In this document: one piece after another, positions 13,003 to 16,915 of the stretch
Numbering within the stretch: position 1 is the stretch's first letter
Layout: every line of letters starts with the position of its first letter
Assembly: GCA_020846655.1 (NCBI GenBank)
Contig: JADLDL010000204.1
Span: forward strand, 1-32,507
DNA length: 32,507 nt
Direction: 5' to 3'
Source of the DNA: Saprospiraceae bacterium
GTDB taxonomy: Bacteria > Bacteroidota > Bacteroidia > Chitinophagales > Saprospiraceae
Notes under the pieces: generated by a model
The model's database searches: none
The model's input: only the letters and a program-made list of their open reading frames with translations
What the model was told of the DNA's origin: nothing
Translations under genes and position numbers: made by a program

Positions 13003-14022
13003 CTACTGGTTATTTTGTTGGTACCGGGCCTGGGCCCATTGCAGGCGTTTGGCCAGCCGCTGCCGCAGCTGGCGCGGGGCCAGTACTTCCAGCGCTTCGG
13101 CGAAGCCGAGTAATTCGCGCTCCAATTCCAGGTTCAACACGACCTGGATGCTGAAAACACAGCCGTCGGTGCGCGTTTCTTCCAGCACTTGCGAAGGGTG
13201 AAAGGGTTTGGTGCGCACATAGGGCGCGTTGGTTGCGTCCACCCAAAACAAAACACGCTGCGGGCCTTGGCCCAAATTTTTGGTGACGCCCACCAGGTCG
13301 TCAAAATACGAGGCTTCGAGCGTGGGGTCGAAGCGGTAGGGCACTTGAGGTTGCGGGGCCAGGCTCTGGATGCGGTCCAGGGCCAGCAATACCGGCGCTT
13401 CGGACTGGTCTATGAGGCCCAGTACAAACCAGCGGTTGCGGTATTCTTTCAGCAAATGCGGGTGAAACACATTCTCGGAGGCAATTTTGGCGCGAAAGGA
13501 TTGGTATTTTACCTGAAGGGCCTGCTGCTGCGCGACCGCCTGGAACAAGGGCTCCAGGTGCTTCAACCCAGTCAGGTGTTCGTTTTTTTCAAAATCAATC
13601 ACCGCCTTGCGCTGCGCCCCGCCGGTGTAAATTTTGTGCTGCAACCGGCTCACCATCCCGTCCACTTCCTCAAAATGGCGAAACCCTTTGAATTGCTGTA
13701 AAATACCAACCACCTCATGCAGGGTAGACAGGTCTTGCCGGGTCAGCGGAATATTGGTGATGCTGTATTTGGGGTCTTCGTAACGGTAAAACTTTTTTTC
13801 CAGCACCACGATCGGGGCGTTGTACCCCAGTTTTTCCGAACGCATCAGTTGAATATCCATTTGCACCGTGCGGCGGCTCACGCCTTTCCGAATGCCTTCG
13901 TATTCGTAGAGTGCATCCGAACAAGCCTCGATCAGGTCCTCCAGCGTCCATTTCCGGTAGCGGTTTTGGAGGCAGGCATCGATGGTTTTGTAGCGCACCA
14001 GGGCGTTGCGATTGACCGGCAT
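13003..14022 (-). CDS. WYL-domain transcriptional regulator
   Basis: A 339-residue regulator with an N-terminal helix-turn-helix region (about residues 8-90; VSRRTVQMDIQLMRSEKLGY is the wHTH core) and a WYL domain (about 140-245) containing YQSFRAKIASENVFHPHLLK and YRNRWFVLGL. A C-terminal WCX-type region follows (about 255-335, RVLFWVDATNAPYVRTKPFH). WYL domains sense ligands, including nucleic acid fragments in studied members. It is divergent from the Ro60/TROVE gene with 118 bp between the start codons and a perfect inverted repeat in that gap, so it is the probable regulator of the Ro-Y RNA locus and of itself. Its 3' end is only 6 bp from the convergent amidohydrolase stop. Confidence 0.9.
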   Translation of the reverse strand: MPVNRNALVRYKTIDACLQNRYRKWTLEDLIEACSDALYEYEGIRKGVSRRTVQMDIQLMRSEKLGYNAPIVVLEKKFYRYEDPKYSITNIPLTRQDLSTLHEVVGILQQFKGFRHFEEVDGMVSRLQHKIYTGGAQRKAVIDFEKNEHLTGLKHLEPLFQAVAQQQALQVKYQSFRAKIASENVFHPHLLKEYRNRWFVLGLIDQSEAPVLLALDRIQSLAPQPQVPYRFDPTLEASYFDDLVGVTKNLGQGPQRVLFWVDATNAPYVRTKPFHPSQVLEETRTDGCVFSIQVVLNLELERELLGFAEALEVLAPRQLRQRLAKRLQWAQARYQQNNQ

Positions 14023-14033
14023 AAATTTTTTTT

Positions 14034-14041
14034 CAAAAATA
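14034..14041 (-). promoter_or_regulatory. -7 box for the WYL regulator gene
   Basis: On the minus strand this reads TATTTTTG, a perfect TAnnTTTG box, 11 bp before the ATG at 14022. The predicted transcript would have almost no leader. The inverted repeat at 14047-14071 occupies its upstream (-33) side. Confidence 0.55.
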
Positions 14042-14046
14042 ATTTT

Positions 14047-14071
14047 TACTGCGCAAAAAGACTGCGCAGTA
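14047..14071. promoter_or_regulatory. Perfect inverted repeat, probable WYL operator
   Basis: TACTGCGCA (14047-14055) and TGCGCAGTA (14063-14071) are exact 9 bp inverted repeats with a 7 bp spacer; ACTGCGCA also occurs as a direct repeat 13 bp apart. The site lies between the -7 boxes of two divergent genes, covering the expected -33 region of both, so a bound dimer could control both promoters. That the WYL protein is the ligand is inferred from position. Confidence 0.75.
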
Positions 14072-14078
14072 GGGTGTA

Positions 14079-14086
14079 AATCTTTG
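14079..14086 (+). promoter_or_regulatory. -7 box for the Ro60/TROVE gene
   Basis: AATCTTTG differs from TAnnTTTG only at its first base and is preceded directly by the inverted repeat at 14047-14071. It would give a leader of about 50 nt before the ATG at 14141. Confidence 0.45.
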
Positions 14087-14140
14087 TCCAGTCAAACAAA
14101 AGGAACTTATTTCTACTCAAATTCATTTAACACCCTTGTC

Positions 14141-15664
14141 ATGTTATTCAATCGCAAATCCACTGCCAACAACCAGGTGCTGAACCACGAAGGTGCAATA
14201 GCCTACACGCTGACGCCCGAACTGGAGCTGTACACCGCAGTAGCGACAGCCGCCCTGAACGAAACGTTCTACGAAGGTTCGGCCGAGCGGCTGACCCGTT
14301 TGCGCGGACTGATCGAAAAAAATGATCCGGTGTTTGTCGCCCAACTGGCCGTTTATGCCCGCGAACAAATGTACCTGCGGAGCATTCCGCTGGTCCTCAC
14401 GGTCGAACTGGCCAAACGCCATCAGGGCGATGCTCTGGTGAGCCGCCTGGTAGCCCGGGTTATCCAGCGCGCCGACGAGATCACCGAGTTGCTGGCCTAC
14501 TATGCTCAGGCCAATGAGCGCCGGGGAGCAAAACAGTTGGGGCGTTTGTCCAAACAAGTGCAGCGCGGCCTTGCCGCAGCGTTCAACAAATTTGACGAGT
14601 ACCAATTTGCCAAATACAACCGCGAAGGGGCTGCCGTCAAACTGCGCGACGCCTTGTTTTTGAGCCACCCGGTGGCCAAAGACGCTGCTCAGCAAGCCTT
14701 GTTCGACAAAATTGTGGCCAACACCCTGGCAACGCCCTACACCTGGGAGACGGAATTGTCGGCCCTGGGGCAGCAAACATTTGCCAATGAAAAGGCAAAA
14801 CGCGCGGCCTTCCGGGCACAATGGGAAGCCCTTATCGATAGCCGCAAACTGGGGTACATGGCCTTGTTGCGGAACCTGCGCAATATTCTGGACGCCGAGG
14901 TTTCGGCCCGGCATATCCAGGCCGTTTGCGAAACACTGGCCAATGCCCGCCAGGTAGCGCAGTCCAAACAACTGCCCTTCCGGTTCCTGGCTGCGTACCG
15001 CGAATTGTTGGACCTGAAATCAGGCTACACGTCTTCGGTATTGTCGGCGCTCGAAGATGCCGTGACGGCCAGCGCTGCCAACCTGCGCGGCTTCGGGTAC
15101 GAAACCCGGGTGGTCATCGCTTGCGACGTATCGGGTTCGATGCAAAAGCCGGTTTCGGCCAAAAGCAAAGTACTCTTGTACGATATCGGCCTGGTACTGG
15201 GTATGTTGTTGAAATCCAAGTGCAAAAACGCCGTGACGGGTATGTTCGGAGATCATTGGAAAATCATCAACCTGCCGGCCAAAAGTGTGCTGGAAAACGT
15301 GCAGGCGTTCTACCGGCGCGAAGGCGAAGTGGGCTATTCGACCAACGGTTATCTGGTGGTGCAGGATTTGCTGGACCGCCGCTATGTGGCCGATAAAGTA
15401 ATGTTGTTTACCGACTGCCAGTTGTGGAACAGCCGTGGCAATGAGCAAATTGCTCAGGTCTGGGAGCAATATCGCCGGCAAGTAGCGCCCAACGCCCAAT
15501 TGTACCTCTTTGACCTGGCCGGATACGGCAATACGCCGCTCGACCTGCGTCAGGACCAGGGGGTACACCTGATCGCCGGCTGGTCGGATAAAATATTCGA
15601 CGTGCTGGCGGCTTTGGAAACAGGGCAGGATGCCGTAGAACTCATCCGGGCGATCGAATGGTAA
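14141..15664 (+). CDS. rsr: Ro60/Rsr TROVE-domain RNA-binding protein
   Basis: A 507-residue bacterial orthologue of Ro60, the ring-shaped protein that binds Y RNAs on its outer surface and misfolded RNA in its central hole, and can guide RNA decay by PNPase. The N-terminal part (about 15-325) is the all-helical HEAT-like TROVE ring (VFVAQLAVYAREQMYLRSIP, then LAKRHQGDALVSRLVARVIQ). The C-terminal von Willebrand A domain has a complete MIDAS: D329-x-S331-x-S333 in DVSGSM, T401 in GYSTNGY and D425 in FTDCQLW. Longer in-frame starts lie across the promoter; the ATG at 14141 is chosen. Immediately downstream are Y RNA-like structures, and a WYL regulator is divergent, so this is a complete Ro RNP locus. 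No rtcA or rtcB RNA-repair genes are in the window. Confidence 0.94.
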   Translation: MLFNRKSTANNQVLNHEGAIAYTLTPELELYTAVATAALNETFYEGSAERLTRLRGLIEKNDPVFVAQLAVYAREQMYLRSIPLVLTVELAKRHQGDALVSRLVARVIQRADEITELLAYYAQANERRGAKQLGRLSKQVQRGLAAAFNKFDEYQFAKYNREGAAVKLRDALFLSHPVAKDAAQQALFDKIVANTLATPYTWETELSALGQQTFANEKAKRAAFRAQWEALIDSRKLGYMALLRNLRNILDAEVSARHIQAVCETLANARQVAQSKQLPFRFLAAYRELLDLKSGYTSSVLSALEDAVTASAANLRGFGYETRVVIACDVSGSMQKPVSAKSKVLLYDIGLVLGMLLKSKCKNAVTGMFGDHWKIINLPAKSVLENVQAFYRREGEVGYSTNGYLVVQDLLDRRYVADKVMLFTDCQLWNSRGNEQIAQVWEQYRRQVAPNAQLYLFDLAGYGNTPLDLRQDQGVHLIAGWSDKIFDVLAALETGQDAVELIRAIEW

Positions 15665-15679
15665 CGAATAGTACGCTGT

Positions 15680-15734
15680 GTTGGACCCGCCAGGGCGCGG
15701 AAACAGGATTGCTTCTCGCGTCCTGGCGGCCAAC
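15680..15734 (+). repeat. Strong intergenic hairpin after the Ro60 gene
   Basis: GTTGG (15680-15684) pairs with CCAAC (15730-15734). Thirteen bases (15687-15699) pair with 15717-15729, with one G-U, around a 17 nt loop; AC at 15685-15686 is bulged. No T-tract follows, so it is a poor intrinsic terminator. It may be an RNA processing or stabilising element separating the Ro mRNA from the Y RNAs, or a dispersed palindromic repeat. It does not contain the motifs shared by the three downstream RNAs. Confidence 0.65.
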
Positions 15735-15763
15735 CCGGCATGACAGATAAAATAGAAAAATAA

Positions 15764-15900
15764 ATGTGGTGCCGTAGAAAAGGGCTACTTCGCACTTTTA
15801 ATGCCCGTGTCGTGGGTTCGAATCCCACTCCCGGTTTTCCGGGATAGCTCAATTGGTAGAGCAGGATATGTGCCTTTTTCGCTTTTTGCCCATGTTTTTT
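15764..15900 (+). ncRNA. YrlA-like Y RNA 1 with circularly permuted tRNA-like domain
   Basis: Lower stem: ATG and GGTG (15764-15766, 15768-15771) pair with TGCCCAT (15887-15893), with a bulged T. An internal loop follows (5' CCGUA, 3' GCUUUU). The inner stem is 15777-15785 with 15872-15880, nine pairs including one G-U. UACUUCGC follows. A six-pair anticodon-stem-like helix (15806-15811 with 15865-15870) leads into the tRNA-like domain. Its T arm is GTGGG, loop TTCGAAT, CCCAC (15812-15828). The acceptor stem TCCCGG/CCGGGA is closed by TTTT (15829-15844). TA corresponds to positions 8-9, and the D arm is GCTC/GAGC with a GG-containing loop (15847-15862). A T6 tract (15895-15900) ends the RNA. 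The arm order T, acceptor, D is that of bacterial Y RNAs, not of a tRNA. Confidence 0.88.
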
Positions 15901-15921
15901 ACTCCAAAACCAACAAACACC

Positions 15922-16001
15922 AAAAGAGCCGGAGCATGTCGTACGGCAGCGTTACTTCGATCCAACCCAAGACGCTGCCGGTTTGTTACTGCTCCCTTTT
16001 T
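15922..16001 (+). ncRNA. Third Y RNA-like hairpin RNA, lacking the tRNA-like domain
   Basis: GGAGCA (15931-15936) pairs with TGCTCC (15990-15995). After an internal loop (5' UGUCGUA, 3' GUUUGUUAC), CGGCAGCGT (15944-15952) pairs perfectly with ACGCTGCCG (15972-15980) around a 19 nt loop. A T5 tract (15997-16001) follows, and an A-rich 5' flank can extend the base. It shares with both flanking Y RNAs the exact layout CGUA, nine stem nucleotides, UACUUCG, and a GYUUKU-type 3' side of the internal loop, while the stem sequence itself is different. It could be only a terminator for Y RNA 1, but the shared motif at fixed spacing favours a minimal Y RNA that binds the Ro protein. Confidence 0.65.
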
Positions 16002-16011
16002 AACTTAAAAT

Positions 16012-16158
16012 AAAAAAGAAGGTGCCGTAGAGGAGAGATACTTCGCTATGGACGACGTGGTCGCGGGTTCGATTCCCGTCGCGCTGATCATTTTTCAGCG
16101 CGTAGCTCAGCTGGTTTAGAGCACGTAATGCTCTTTTCGCTTGTCGCCCTTCTTTTTT
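16012..16158 (+). ncRNA. YrlA-like Y RNA 2 with circularly permuted tRNA-like domain
   Basis: A6 plus GAA (16012-16020) and GGTG (16021-16024) pair with CGCC (16145-16148) and TTC plus T6 (16150-16158), with a bulged C. The internal loop is 5' CCGUA, 3' GCUUGU. GAGGAGAG (16030-16037) pairs with CTCTTTTC (16131-16138). UACUUCGC follows. The tRNA-like domain has a T arm (16063-16079; stem GCGGG/CCCGT, loop TTCGATT), a perfect 8 bp acceptor stem (16080-16087 with 16095-16102) closed by a 7 nt loop, TA at 16103-16104, and a D arm (16105-16122; GCTC/GAGC with a GG-containing loop). Compared with Y RNA 1 the stems differ in sequence but conserve pairing. The final U-tract overlaps the stop codon of the convergent LytTR gene. 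Confidence 0.88.
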
Positions 16159-16915
16159 ATTTCCCCATCCAGGCTTTAAAGGCCTCCACTTTTTCGCGGC
16201 TGATCAGCACCTCTTCGCTGCCCAGCGGGTCTTTCAGGCTTACTTTGAGCCGGCTGTTGGAATACGATACCACGTCTTTGATGACAGAAAGGGTAGCGAT
16301 ATACTGCCGGTTGAGTCGAAAAAACTGTTCGGGGTCGAGCATATCCTCCAGTTGTTCGAGGGTGTAATCGATCGGAAACTTCCGGCCATTGCGGTGGCGC
16401 AGCCAAACAATTTTGTTTTCCCCAAAGAAAAAATCGATCTCCTCCGCCGCTATGGCGCTGAGGTGATCGCCTATTTTGGCCATGAACCGGGTTTTGTACT
16501 GCCGGGGCTTCAGGGCAAGCATCATTTGCTGGATGGTACCGGCATCGATGGCTGCCGCGCCGCGCAAGTGCCGCAGTTTGGAAAAAGCCTGGGCGAGGTC
16601 CTCCTGGGCGATGGGTTTGAGCAGGTAATCCACGCTGTTCACCTTGAAGGCGCGCAAGGCATAGGCGTCGTAGGCGGTGGTAAAAATGATGGGGCAGGGC
16701 ACTTTCACCTGTTCGAAAATTTCAAAACTGAGCCCGTCTGCCAGTTGAATATCAAAAAAAGCCAGATCGGGCGCCGGGTTGTTGCGAAACCAATCGACGG
16801 CAGCTTTCACCGTATCCAGCGTTGCCAGCACCTCAATGCCGGGATCGAGGCGTTGTAGTTTGGAAATCAGGCCCCAAACCGCCAGGTCTTCGTCTTCAAT
16901 GATCAGTACGTTCAC
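16157..16915 (-). CDS. LytTR-family response regulator
   Basis: A 252-residue LytR/AlgR-type regulator. The receiver domain (1-120) has the acidic pocket EDED (7-10), phosphoacceptor Asp55 in FFDIQLADG, the Thr of IIFTTAYDAYA and the Lys of DYLLKPI. The LytTR DNA-binding domain (about 150-250) includes IDFFFGENKIVWLRHRNGRK, FFRLNRQYIATLSVI and a terminal LISREKVEAFKAWMG. It follows the histidine kinase gene by 44 bp in the same direction, so the pair forms a two-component system. Its stop codon overlaps the terminal U-tract of Y RNA 2 on the other strand. Confidence 0.94.
   Translation of the reverse strand: MNVLIIEDEDLAVWGLISKLQRLDPGIEVLATLDTVKAAVDWFRNNPAPDLAFFDIQLADGLSFEIFEQVKVPCPIIFTTAYDAYALRAFKVNSVDYLLKPIAQEDLAQAFSKLRHLRGAAAIDAGTIQQMMLALKPRQYKTRFMAKIGDHLSAIAAEEIDFFFGENKIVWLRHRNGRKFPIDYTLEQLEDMLDPEQFFRLNRQYIATLSVIKDVVSYSNSRLKVSLKDPLGSEEVLISREKVEAFKAWMGK

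What the first reader, a model, noticed from the sequence alone, without database searches (positions are those of the whole stretch)
13003..16158. Complete Ro60 ribonucleoprotein locus: WYL regulator, Ro60 and a cluster of three Y RNA-like RNAs
One compact unit holds a TROVE/Ro60 gene with intact MIDAS, a 492 bp stretch downstream of it that contains three structured RNAs and no protein gene, and a divergent WYL regulator with a perfect inverted repeat in the shared promoter. Ro60 and YrlA RNAs are known in other bacteria (for example with rtcBA in enterobacteria). Here there is no RtcR or rtcBA; control appears to be by a WYL protein, and the RNA set is larger.
Basis: partly seen in the sequence, partly recalled or inferred. 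Interest (0 to 1): 0.93.

Follow-up and report, generated by a model that had tools for sequence, protein, structure and literature searches.

The report
Ro60 locus with tRNA-mimicking RNAs
This bacterial gene cluster encodes a Ro60 ring protein, a switch protein and three small RNAs, two of which look like whole tRNAs cut open and re-joined so that they still show an anticodon loop, which suggests that they stand in for real tRNAs in RNA damage control.

Summary
In detail: a Ro60/TROVE gene (14141-15664), a divergent WYL regulator (13003-14022) and three Ro-type RNAs (15764-15895, 15922-16001, 16008-16162). RNA1 and RNA3 are circularly permuted tRNA mimics related to YrlA but below Rfam's cut-off; RNA2 is a bare Ro-type hairpin. 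Comparison with 80 related loci, nearly all labelled Bacteroidota, shows (i) arrays of such RNAs downstream of Ro60 (262 elements in 80 of 81 loci; 10 in 1.42 Mb of control) with strong covariation of Ro stem, T-arm and acceptor-like stem; (ii) an anticodon arm at canonical tRNA spacing in most permuted mimics (U33 in 75 of 81, purine 37 in 77; pairs 27-43 and 28-42 in 81 and 79), its 5' strand broken near 28/29 where the Ro stem enters; window anticodons are UUU and AUG; (iii) a conserved palindrome TGCGCA-N7-TGCGCA in many Ro60 promoters. RtcB lies near 45 of 80 relatives and elsewhere in this genome. Best reading: a WYL-controlled Ro RNP that displays tRNA mimics (decoys or tethers) during RNA damage. 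Anatomy is well supported, though RNA3's own minimum-energy fold differs from the model; function is inferred. A new variant of a known kind.

The parts
13003..14022 (-). WYL-domain transcription regulator (WYL + WCX), divergent from the Ro60 gene
   Evidence: Pfam; homologue on the opposite strand upstream of TROVE in 35 of 80 relatives
14047..14071 (.). Candidate operator TACTGCGCA-N7-TGCGCAGTA in the shared promoter
   Evidence: recurs as TGCGCA-N7-TGCGCA in relatives; exact CTGCGCA-N7-TGCGCAG occurs once in the 6.4 Mb genome
14141..15664 (+). Ro60/Rsr protein (TROVE + vWA), MIDAS DVSGS at 15125-15139
15675..15740 (+). Long single-copy hairpin between Ro60 gene and RNA1, no Ro motif; leader, processing or stability element unknown
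15764..15895 (+). RNA1: Ro stem plus circularly permuted tRNA mimic (T-arm 15812-15828, closed acceptor-like hairpin 15829-15844, D-arm 15847-15862, U-rich tail to about 15900)
   Evidence: Rfam YrlA 50.5 bits, fold, alignment A1
15792..15804 (+). Anticodon hairpin of RNA1: GCA-CUUUUAA-UGC, Lys (UUU) type loop; stem completed, by the model, by CC 15805-15806 with GG 15864-15865
   Evidence: hairpin in the minimum-energy fold; model pairs by tRNA numbering
15922..16001 (+). RNA2: bare Ro-type Y RNA (GUCGUAC...UUACUUCG / GUUUGUUAC) with a short apical loop and no tRNA module
   Evidence: fold z -3.67; scanner hit of the minimal class
16008..16162 (+). RNA3: second permuted tRNA mimic on a Ro stem with a 15-bp perfect lower stem and terminal T run
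   Evidence: its single-sequence minimum-energy fold differs
16044..16057 (+). Anticodon arm of RNA3 by the model: CG-CUAUGGA-CG plus ACG 16055-16057 pairing with CGU 16124-16126; loop with U33 and anticodon AUG
   Evidence: tRNA numbering; not seen in the single-sequence fold

Best explanation
This is a WYL-controlled Ro60 ribonucleoprotein locus. The WYL protein binds the palindrome in the shared promoter and switches Ro60 and the RNAs on in response to a damage signal. The Ro ring binds a conserved stem present in all three RNAs. RNA1 and RNA3 hang from that stem a whole tRNA mimic: the tRNA is circularly permuted, its acceptor end is closed by a loop so it cannot be charged, and the stem enters through a break in the 5' strand of the anticodon stem near positions 28/29, leaving the anticodon loop (UUU in RNA1, AUG in RNA3) exposed. 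RNA2 is a Ro-only RNA without cargo. The mimics most likely act as Ro-bound stand-ins for tRNAs, holding or occupying enzymes that recognise the whole tRNA including its anticodon loop, above all anticodon nucleases and the repair or decay enzymes that follow them. Shown by sequence: genes, RNA architecture, anticodon arm, conservation, recurrence of the palindrome. Inferred: that the RNAs are transcribed, that Ro binds them, that WYL controls them, and the decoy or tether role.
For: Protein families. 262 Ro-stem elements downstream of TROVE in 80 of 81 loci against 10 in 1.42 Mb of control sequence. RNAalifold: 34 pairs, 28 with double-sided changes, in Ro stem, T-arm, acceptor-like stem and D-arm. 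Anticodon arm in 81 RNAs by tRNA numbering: U33 75, purine 37 77, pyrimidine 32 69; pair 27-43 in 81 and 28-42 in 79 (shuffle means 36.9 and 41.5, maxima 50 and 51); 30-40 in 68 (maximum 61), 31-39 in 55 (maximum 48), 29-41 by either strand in 78; all five pairs in 51. 25 different triplets among the 75 loops with U33, and different triplets in each of the 19 loci with more than one such RNA. RNA-repair context: RtcB in 45 of 80 loci; single members tested hit RlaP, T4-type RNA ligase and PARG. The decoy idea was raised for Salmonella YrlA as a competitive inhibitor of an anticodon nuclease (PMC7790460, passages). Mimicry beyond tRNA: Ro-stem RNAs in two other loci carry 33 and 25 nt at 97% and 96% identity to one place of 23S rRNA. 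Recurrence of the palindrome.
Against: No expression, binding or cleavage data. In Salmonella fragments of YrlA were not detected, so it is not cut by the nuclease (PMC7790460), and the function described for a bacterial Y RNA in the passages I saw is tethering PNPase to Ro. RNAalifold on the MAFFT alignment does not itself predict the anticodon-arm pairs; they rest on the tRNA-numbered count. There, for 29-41 on the Ro side, a register slid by two gives 63 against 59 observed. The minimum-energy fold of RNA3 lacks the anticodon arm, and that of RNA1 has the hairpin but pairs its flank differently. The anticodon AUG of RNA3 is unusual for a bacterial tRNA (recalled), and one triplet in the set (UUA) would read a stop codon. 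6 of 81 loops lack U33, 30 of 81 lack at least one anticodon-stem pair, and 13 of 94 permuted RNAs were set aside by the rule for room for the loop. The palindrome pattern was found in only 16 of 36 WYL-bearing loci (window included) and also in 12 of 45 without a nearby WYL gene.
Confidence: 0.5

Rival explanations
1. Classical tether: the tRNA-like modules bind PNPase (or another exonuclease) and tether it to Ro for structured-RNA decay; the anticodon arm is merely a retained structural part of the tRNA fold, and variety between RNAs is drift.
For: Described for D. radiodurans Rsr, Y RNA and PNPase (PMC8394870, PMC7790460 passages); the elbow parts (T-loop, D-arm) are among the best conserved, although the selection of RNAs used those letters.
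Against: Does not explain retained U33 and purine 37, the covarying anticodon stem and varied anticodons, several differently permuted mimics per locus, or 23S rRNA-like cargo.
Confidence: 0.3
2. Y RNAs as substrates for tRNA-modifying or processing enzymes: modification of the mimic, including its anticodon loop, is the point (gating Ro entry or titrating a modifying enzyme).
For: YrlA is a substrate for DusA and TruB (PMC8394870 passage); T-loop and D-arm motifs are kept.
Against: No modification data here; does not explain the RtcB and RlaP neighbourhood.
Confidence: 0.12
3. Permuted tRNA genes: the RNAs are processed into working tRNAs, as with permuted tRNA genes of some algae and archaea (recalled).
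For: tRNA arms including an anticodon arm are complete in many; real tRNA genes are interleaved with Y RNAs in some relatives.
Against: RNA1 joins its acceptor strands with a 4-nt loop and no CCA; the break lies inside the anticodon stem; each of the 81 aligned units keeps the Ro 5' motif.
Confidence: 0.04
4. Chance or decayed tRNA-derived repeats without function.
For: RNA3 alone folds only slightly better than shuffles (z -1.68) and not into the model fold.
Against: Covariation over 81 RNAs and strong confinement to one strand and place: 262 downstream of TROVE against 10 in the control, no 5'-motif hit on the minus strand of the 80 relatives.
Confidence: 0.01

Closest known systems
YrlA (Rfam RF02553), bacterial Y RNA with tRNA-like module
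   Same: Stem formed by the two ends; T-arm, closed acceptor-like hairpin and D-arm in permuted order; sits beside a Ro gene
   Different: Scores below Rfam's cut-off (50.5 and 38.6 against 69); adds an anticodon hairpin at canonical tRNA spacing that the Rfam consensus does not model (six nt of it are an insertion in RNA1); several different mimics side by side
Salmonella rsr-yrlBA-rtcBA RNA repair operon under RtcR
   Same: Ro protein, more than one Y RNA, RNA-repair genes nearby in many relatives, one divergent regulator (PMC7790460 passages)
   Different: WYL regulator with its own palindrome instead of the CARF/sigma-54 RtcR; RtcB is on another contig in this genome; mimics show anticodon loops
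Deinococcus Rsr-Y RNA-PNPase machine (RYPER)
   Same: Ro ring plus Y RNA; the same role as tether is possible
   Different: PNPase involvement untested here
WYL-domain regulators of defence and DNA-damage genes
   Same: WYL + WCX protein, divergent promoter, palindromic candidate operator
   Different: Here its neighbour is a Ro60/Y RNA unit; the held text of the paper on CARF and WYL regulators has no occurrence of TROVE, Ro60 or Y RNA (PMC4012209, term search)

Membership tests
Ro60/Rsr (TROVE) proteins | TROVE domain followed by Ro60-type vWA domain with MIDAS | tested here: met
   Pfam TROVE and vWA_Ro60 over cut-off; DVSGS read at 15125-15139; PDB TROVE protein aligned over 13-499
Ro60/Rsr (TROVE) proteins | NCBIfam Rsr equivalog | tested here: not met
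   NF041674 32.7 bits against a cut-off of 900: same superfamily, not that narrow equivalog
Ro60/Rsr (TROVE) proteins | Binds Y RNA | not testable with these tools
   needs RNA immunoprecipitation
YrlA RNA (RF02553) | Score over the curated Rfam cut-off | tested here: not met
   50.5 and 38.6 bits against 69; RNA2 no match
YrlA RNA (RF02553) | Terminal stem plus permuted T-arm, acceptor-like hairpin, D-arm | tested here: met
   RNA1 and RNA3 in the covarying alignment; RNA2 has the stem only
YrlA RNA (RF02553) | Tethers PNPase; modified by DusA and TruB | not testable with these tools
   reported for other species (PMC8394870)
RtcR-controlled RNA repair operon | RtcR and rtcBA adjacent | tested here: not met
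   The five genes scanned around the locus are amidohydrolase, WYL, TROVE, LytTR regulator and histidine kinase; the RtcB matches of this genome are on another contig; RtcA and RtcR were not searched genome-wide
WYL transcription regulators | WYL and WCX domains over cut-off | tested here: met
   44.9 and 52.3 bits
WYL transcription regulators | DNA-binding N-terminal domain | tested here: inconclusive
   no HTH family reached E 0.001; recurrence of the palindrome suggests DNA binding
tRNA genes | Linear cloverleaf recognised as tRNA | tested here: not met
   ARAGORN 0 genes in the window

The most novel reading that the evidence does not exclude
Ro60 loci encode libraries of Ro-bound substrate mimics. 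Each array member shows a different cellular RNA target (permuted or unpermuted tRNAs with distinct anticodon loops, and in two loci a 23S rRNA segment) on a common Ro handle, so that Ro serves as a decoy or sensor platform against RNA-cleaving toxins, switched on by WYL (or RtcR) and backed by RtcB repair.
Probability: 0.35. Interest if true: 0.92.

Novelty: new variant of a known kind. Interest (0 to 1): 0.8.

Why it matters
What bacterial Ro60 and Y RNAs do is an old open question. Anticodon loops kept in permuted tRNA mimics, differing between neighbours in one array, give a specific testable prediction about which enzymes the RNAs meet. A recurring palindrome beside a WYL gene, found once in this genome in its exact extended form, makes induction testable. 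If the substrate-mimic reading holds, Ro RNPs join RNA repair as a defence layer against anticodon and ribosome nucleases.

Tried and rejected
Ordinary tRNA genes in the window: none. RNA2 as a terminator only: rejected, since it has both halves of the Ro motif and is one of 50 minimal elements in 44 loci, window included. Hairpin 15675-15740 as a repeat element: rejected, single copy. A link of each mimic to one tRNA of the same genome: only inspected by eye in the tRNAs around 30 of 34 hits, no clear parent seen, not scored. The anticodon loop as a Bacteroidota invention: rejected, because a Rhodococcus plasmid (loops UUUGGGA and CUGUUAA) and viral contigs L132 and L134 show it too; the one letter match of L131 does not show U33. 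First attempts at classifying payloads and loops used looser rules, and the motif also matched inside the loop; replace them. A search for rRNA-like cargo downstream of TROVE: two clear hits (L046 E 4e-10, L075 E 8e-6) and one weak one (L044, 16 nt, E 0.015); in the upstream control L049 has 23 nt at 91% to the same place of 23S rRNA (E 0.002) among six other hits of E 0.005-0.019, so L049 is not counted. Rfam does not recognise the L075 rRNA-like RNA, and its fold is not better than shuffles (z -1.22). Single-sequence folding of the two Rhodococcus RNAs gave no signal above shuffles (z -0.87 and 0.18). A scan of viral contigs with a Rhizobium Ro protein found no relative. A dot-bracket string for the full model was prepared, but the count of structure pairs was not run with it. 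Paper searches: open-licence PMC only; two returned none, and (78 papers; 630) I saw the first 20 in the listing; nothing on Y RNA arrays or anticodon loops in those listings. The key papers (Chen 2014, Wang 2018, Sim and Wolin 2018) are not held, so I cannot say whether they mention these features; Chen 2013 and Burroughs and Aravind 2016 were seen only as references and not looked up.
Full report
What is there. The Ro60 gene runs from 14141 to 15664; Pfam gives TROVE 95.4 bits and Ro60 vWA 31.3 bits, the MIDAS motif DVSGS is intact, and PDB chains 9l5y and 9kop align over residues 13-499. Upstream and divergent lies a WYL/WCX regulator, 13003-14022. The shared promoter holds TACTGCGCA-N7-TGCGCAGTA at 14047-14071. 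Downstream, before the convergent LytTR response regulator that ends at 16157, are 492 bp with three Ro-type RNAs and one extra hairpin.

The RNAs. RNA1 and RNA3 match Rfam YrlA at 50.5 and 38.6 bits, below its 69-bit cut-off. All three share the 5' motif GUCGUA or GCCGUA followed by UACUUCG, and a 3' partner strand near GCUUGUUGCC. Between these arms RNA1 and RNA3 hold, in this order, an anticodon loop, a T-arm, an acceptor-like hairpin and a D-arm, that is, a circularly permuted tRNA; RNA2 holds only 13 nt. Single-sequence folding shows nearly this fold for RNA1, though it pairs the flank of the anticodon hairpin differently; for RNA3 it gives another fold that keeps only part of the T-arm and the acceptor-like hairpin.

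Conservation. I searched GTDB genomes with the Ro protein: 325 confirmed relatives, of which the best 80 were kept, so the sample is biased to close relatives of 60-70% identity; nearly all record titles are Bacteroidota. A scanner for the Ro stem (5' motif, 3' motif and pairing of both arms, score at least 30) found 262 elements within 3.5 kb downstream of TROVE on the coding strand, in 80 of 81 loci including the window, and 10 in 1.42 Mb of control (minus strand, and plus strand elsewhere); the count per locus ranges from 0 to 8 with a mean of 3.2. Some control hits may be real, since in L032 and L049 the 5' motif also or only occurs upstream of TROVE. By rough payload class: 108 T-arm before D-arm, 84 with a T-arm and no recognised D-arm after it, 50 minimal (in 44 loci), 20 without a recognised T-arm. 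For the permuted class I took 109 letter matches to a T-arm followed by a D-arm; 97 had the ACUUC motif upstream, 94 remained downstream of TROVE after removing duplicates, and 81 had room for an anticodon loop, 13 being set aside. Their alignment gives 34 consensus pairs, 28 with compensatory changes, including 17 pairs of the Ro stem. The D-stem pairs never vary because the selection fixed those letters, and RNAalifold did not itself pair the anticodon arm. In an independent draw of 296 Bacteroidota genomes, 25 have a match to the Ro protein; of the 19 with at least 56% identity, I count 15 (own genome included) with an exact Ro 5'-motif hit on the same strand within about 2 kb downstream. 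Of the 271 genomes without a match, 17 have a single motif hit, presumably chance (compared by eye).

The anticodon arm. With tRNA numbering fixed by the T-loop alone, position 33 is U in 75 of 81, 37 is a purine in 77, 32 a pyrimidine in 69. Pair 27-43 forms in 81 of 81 and 28-42 in 79 of 81 between the strand after the D-arm and the strand before the T-arm (shuffle means 36.9 and 41.5, maxima 50 and 51). Pairs 30-40 and 31-39 form in 68 and 55 with the strand that comes out of the Ro stem (shuffle maxima 61 and 48), 29-41 in 59 with that strand (maximum 47, but 63 in one slid register) and in 78 by either strand. All five are present in 51 of 81. The simplest reading is a whole tRNA opened in the 5' strand of its anticodon stem near 28/29, with the Ro stem inserted there. 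Among the 75 loops with U33 there are 25 triplets, most often UUU (16), AGG (8), UGG (6), GAU (6), GUU (5), CUU (5) and UCG (4); in each of the 19 loci with more than one such RNA the triplets differ. In the window, RNA1 shows CUUUUAA (UUU, Lys type) and RNA3 CUAUGGA (AUG). The feature is not limited to Bacteroidota: a Rhodococcus plasmid has two such RNAs with Pro (UGG) and Asn (GUU) type loops. Related sequences are not independent; shuffles ignore that.

Other cargo. Ten RNAs in nine loci are opened in the D-loop instead. An 18-member cluster, first member from a Flavobacterium (L016), is a T-arm RNA closed by GGGG/CCCC that looks unpermuted (read by eye). In L046 and L075 a Ro-stem RNA carries 33 and 25 nt at 97% and 96% identity to the same place of 23S rRNA.

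Regulation and context. A WYL homologue of the window's regulator is divergent upstream in 35 of 80 loci (15 of these within 300 bp), and RtcB is in the neighbourhood in 45 of 80, both in 21 (one RtcB member was confirmed by Pfam). The palindrome TG(C/T)GCA-N3..9-TGC(G/A)CA occurs within 600 bp upstream of TROVE in 16 of 36 WYL-bearing loci (window included) and 12 of 45 others, against 30 elsewhere in roughly 0.9 Mb; two of the 12 have a longer spacer at a different place and are probably chance. In L057 it lies at both the WYL and the TROVE promoter. In the own genome the exact form CTGCGCA-N7-TGCGCAG occurs only here. Within the window's genus a TROVE match is found in 7 of the 37 genomes searched (own included), only 4 of them close, so the locus is patchy.

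Interpretation. The anatomy (Ro60, Ro-stem RNAs, permuted tRNA mimics with anticodon arm, WYL gene and palindrome) I hold at about 0.95 for the group, a little less for the exact fold of RNA3. Function is inferred. Published work gives two leads: Ro and Y RNA tether PNPase in Deinococcus, and the tRNA-like part of Salmonella YrlA was suggested as a competitive inhibitor of an anticodon nuclease although it is not cut itself (PMC7790460 and PMC8394870, passages). Retained U33, purine 37, a covarying anticodon stem and a varied anticodon set argue that the partner reads the anticodon arm, which fits a decoy or sensor of anticodon nucleases in an RNA-repair setting better than a pure elbow-binding tether. 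I put this at 0.5, the PNPase tether at 0.3.

Novelty. Ro60 with Y RNAs, a tRNA-like YrlA module and RNA-repair linkage are known. I found nothing in the listings of my open-licence searches on Y RNA arrays, anticodon arms in Y RNAs or a WYL operator for Ro (term search in one WYL paper), but the main YrlA papers could not be read. I therefore call it a new variant of a known kind.

Noticed in passing
L046:9854-9886 and L075:9486-9510: Ro-stem RNAs whose cargo copies one place of 23S rRNA (33 nt at 97%, 25 nt at 96%); the two share a longer identical stretch that departs from rRNA in the same way, so they look like related elements in different genera.
   Followed up: partly
L056:6764-8070, L076:7450-8125, L070:6732-7625, L053:7157-7390: Ordinary tRNA genes (Lys, Gln, His, Arg, Asn, Cys, Pro, Phe and others) are interleaved with Y RNAs downstream of Ro60 (20 loci scanned): possibly spare tRNAs beside an RNA-repair unit.
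   Followed up: partly
L042, L045, L059, L060, L065, L066, L069, L074, L076 downstream of TROVE: A second permutation: tRNA mimics opened in the D-loop, with the AGAGC side after the ACTTCG motif and TAGCTCA or a near form at the end (10 RNAs).
   Followed up: partly
L122:5130-5620 (Pseudomonas plasmid pBASL58): About six small Ro-type hairpins with the motif CTACATC downstream of TROVE beside an RtcR-like regulator: arrays may exist outside Bacteroidota (by eye; the scripted motif search found none).
   Followed up: no
L128:4740-5600 (Bacteroides phage crAss001): The phage TROVE gene is followed by several elements with the TTACTTC motif and tRNA-like arms, which look like a phage Y RNA array (by eye; the scripted motif search found none).
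   Followed up: no
L126:2965-8480 (Arthrobacter phage Atuin): The Ro gene sits inside a large cluster of phage tRNA genes.
   Followed up: no
window 15675-15740: Very stable single-copy hairpin between the Ro60 stop and RNA1 (z -5.73), without Ro motif or T run.
   Followed up: partly
L004, L005, L008, L018, L031, L048, L055, L064, L080, just after TROVE: A poly(ADP-ribose) glycohydrolase-type gene follows Ro60, before the Y RNAs, in 9 Hymenobacter loci (one member tested with Pfam).
   Followed up: no
L070: The record is titled Williamsia sp. (an actinobacterium) but its Ro gene is 65% identical to that of the window, so the bin label may be wrong.
   Followed up: no
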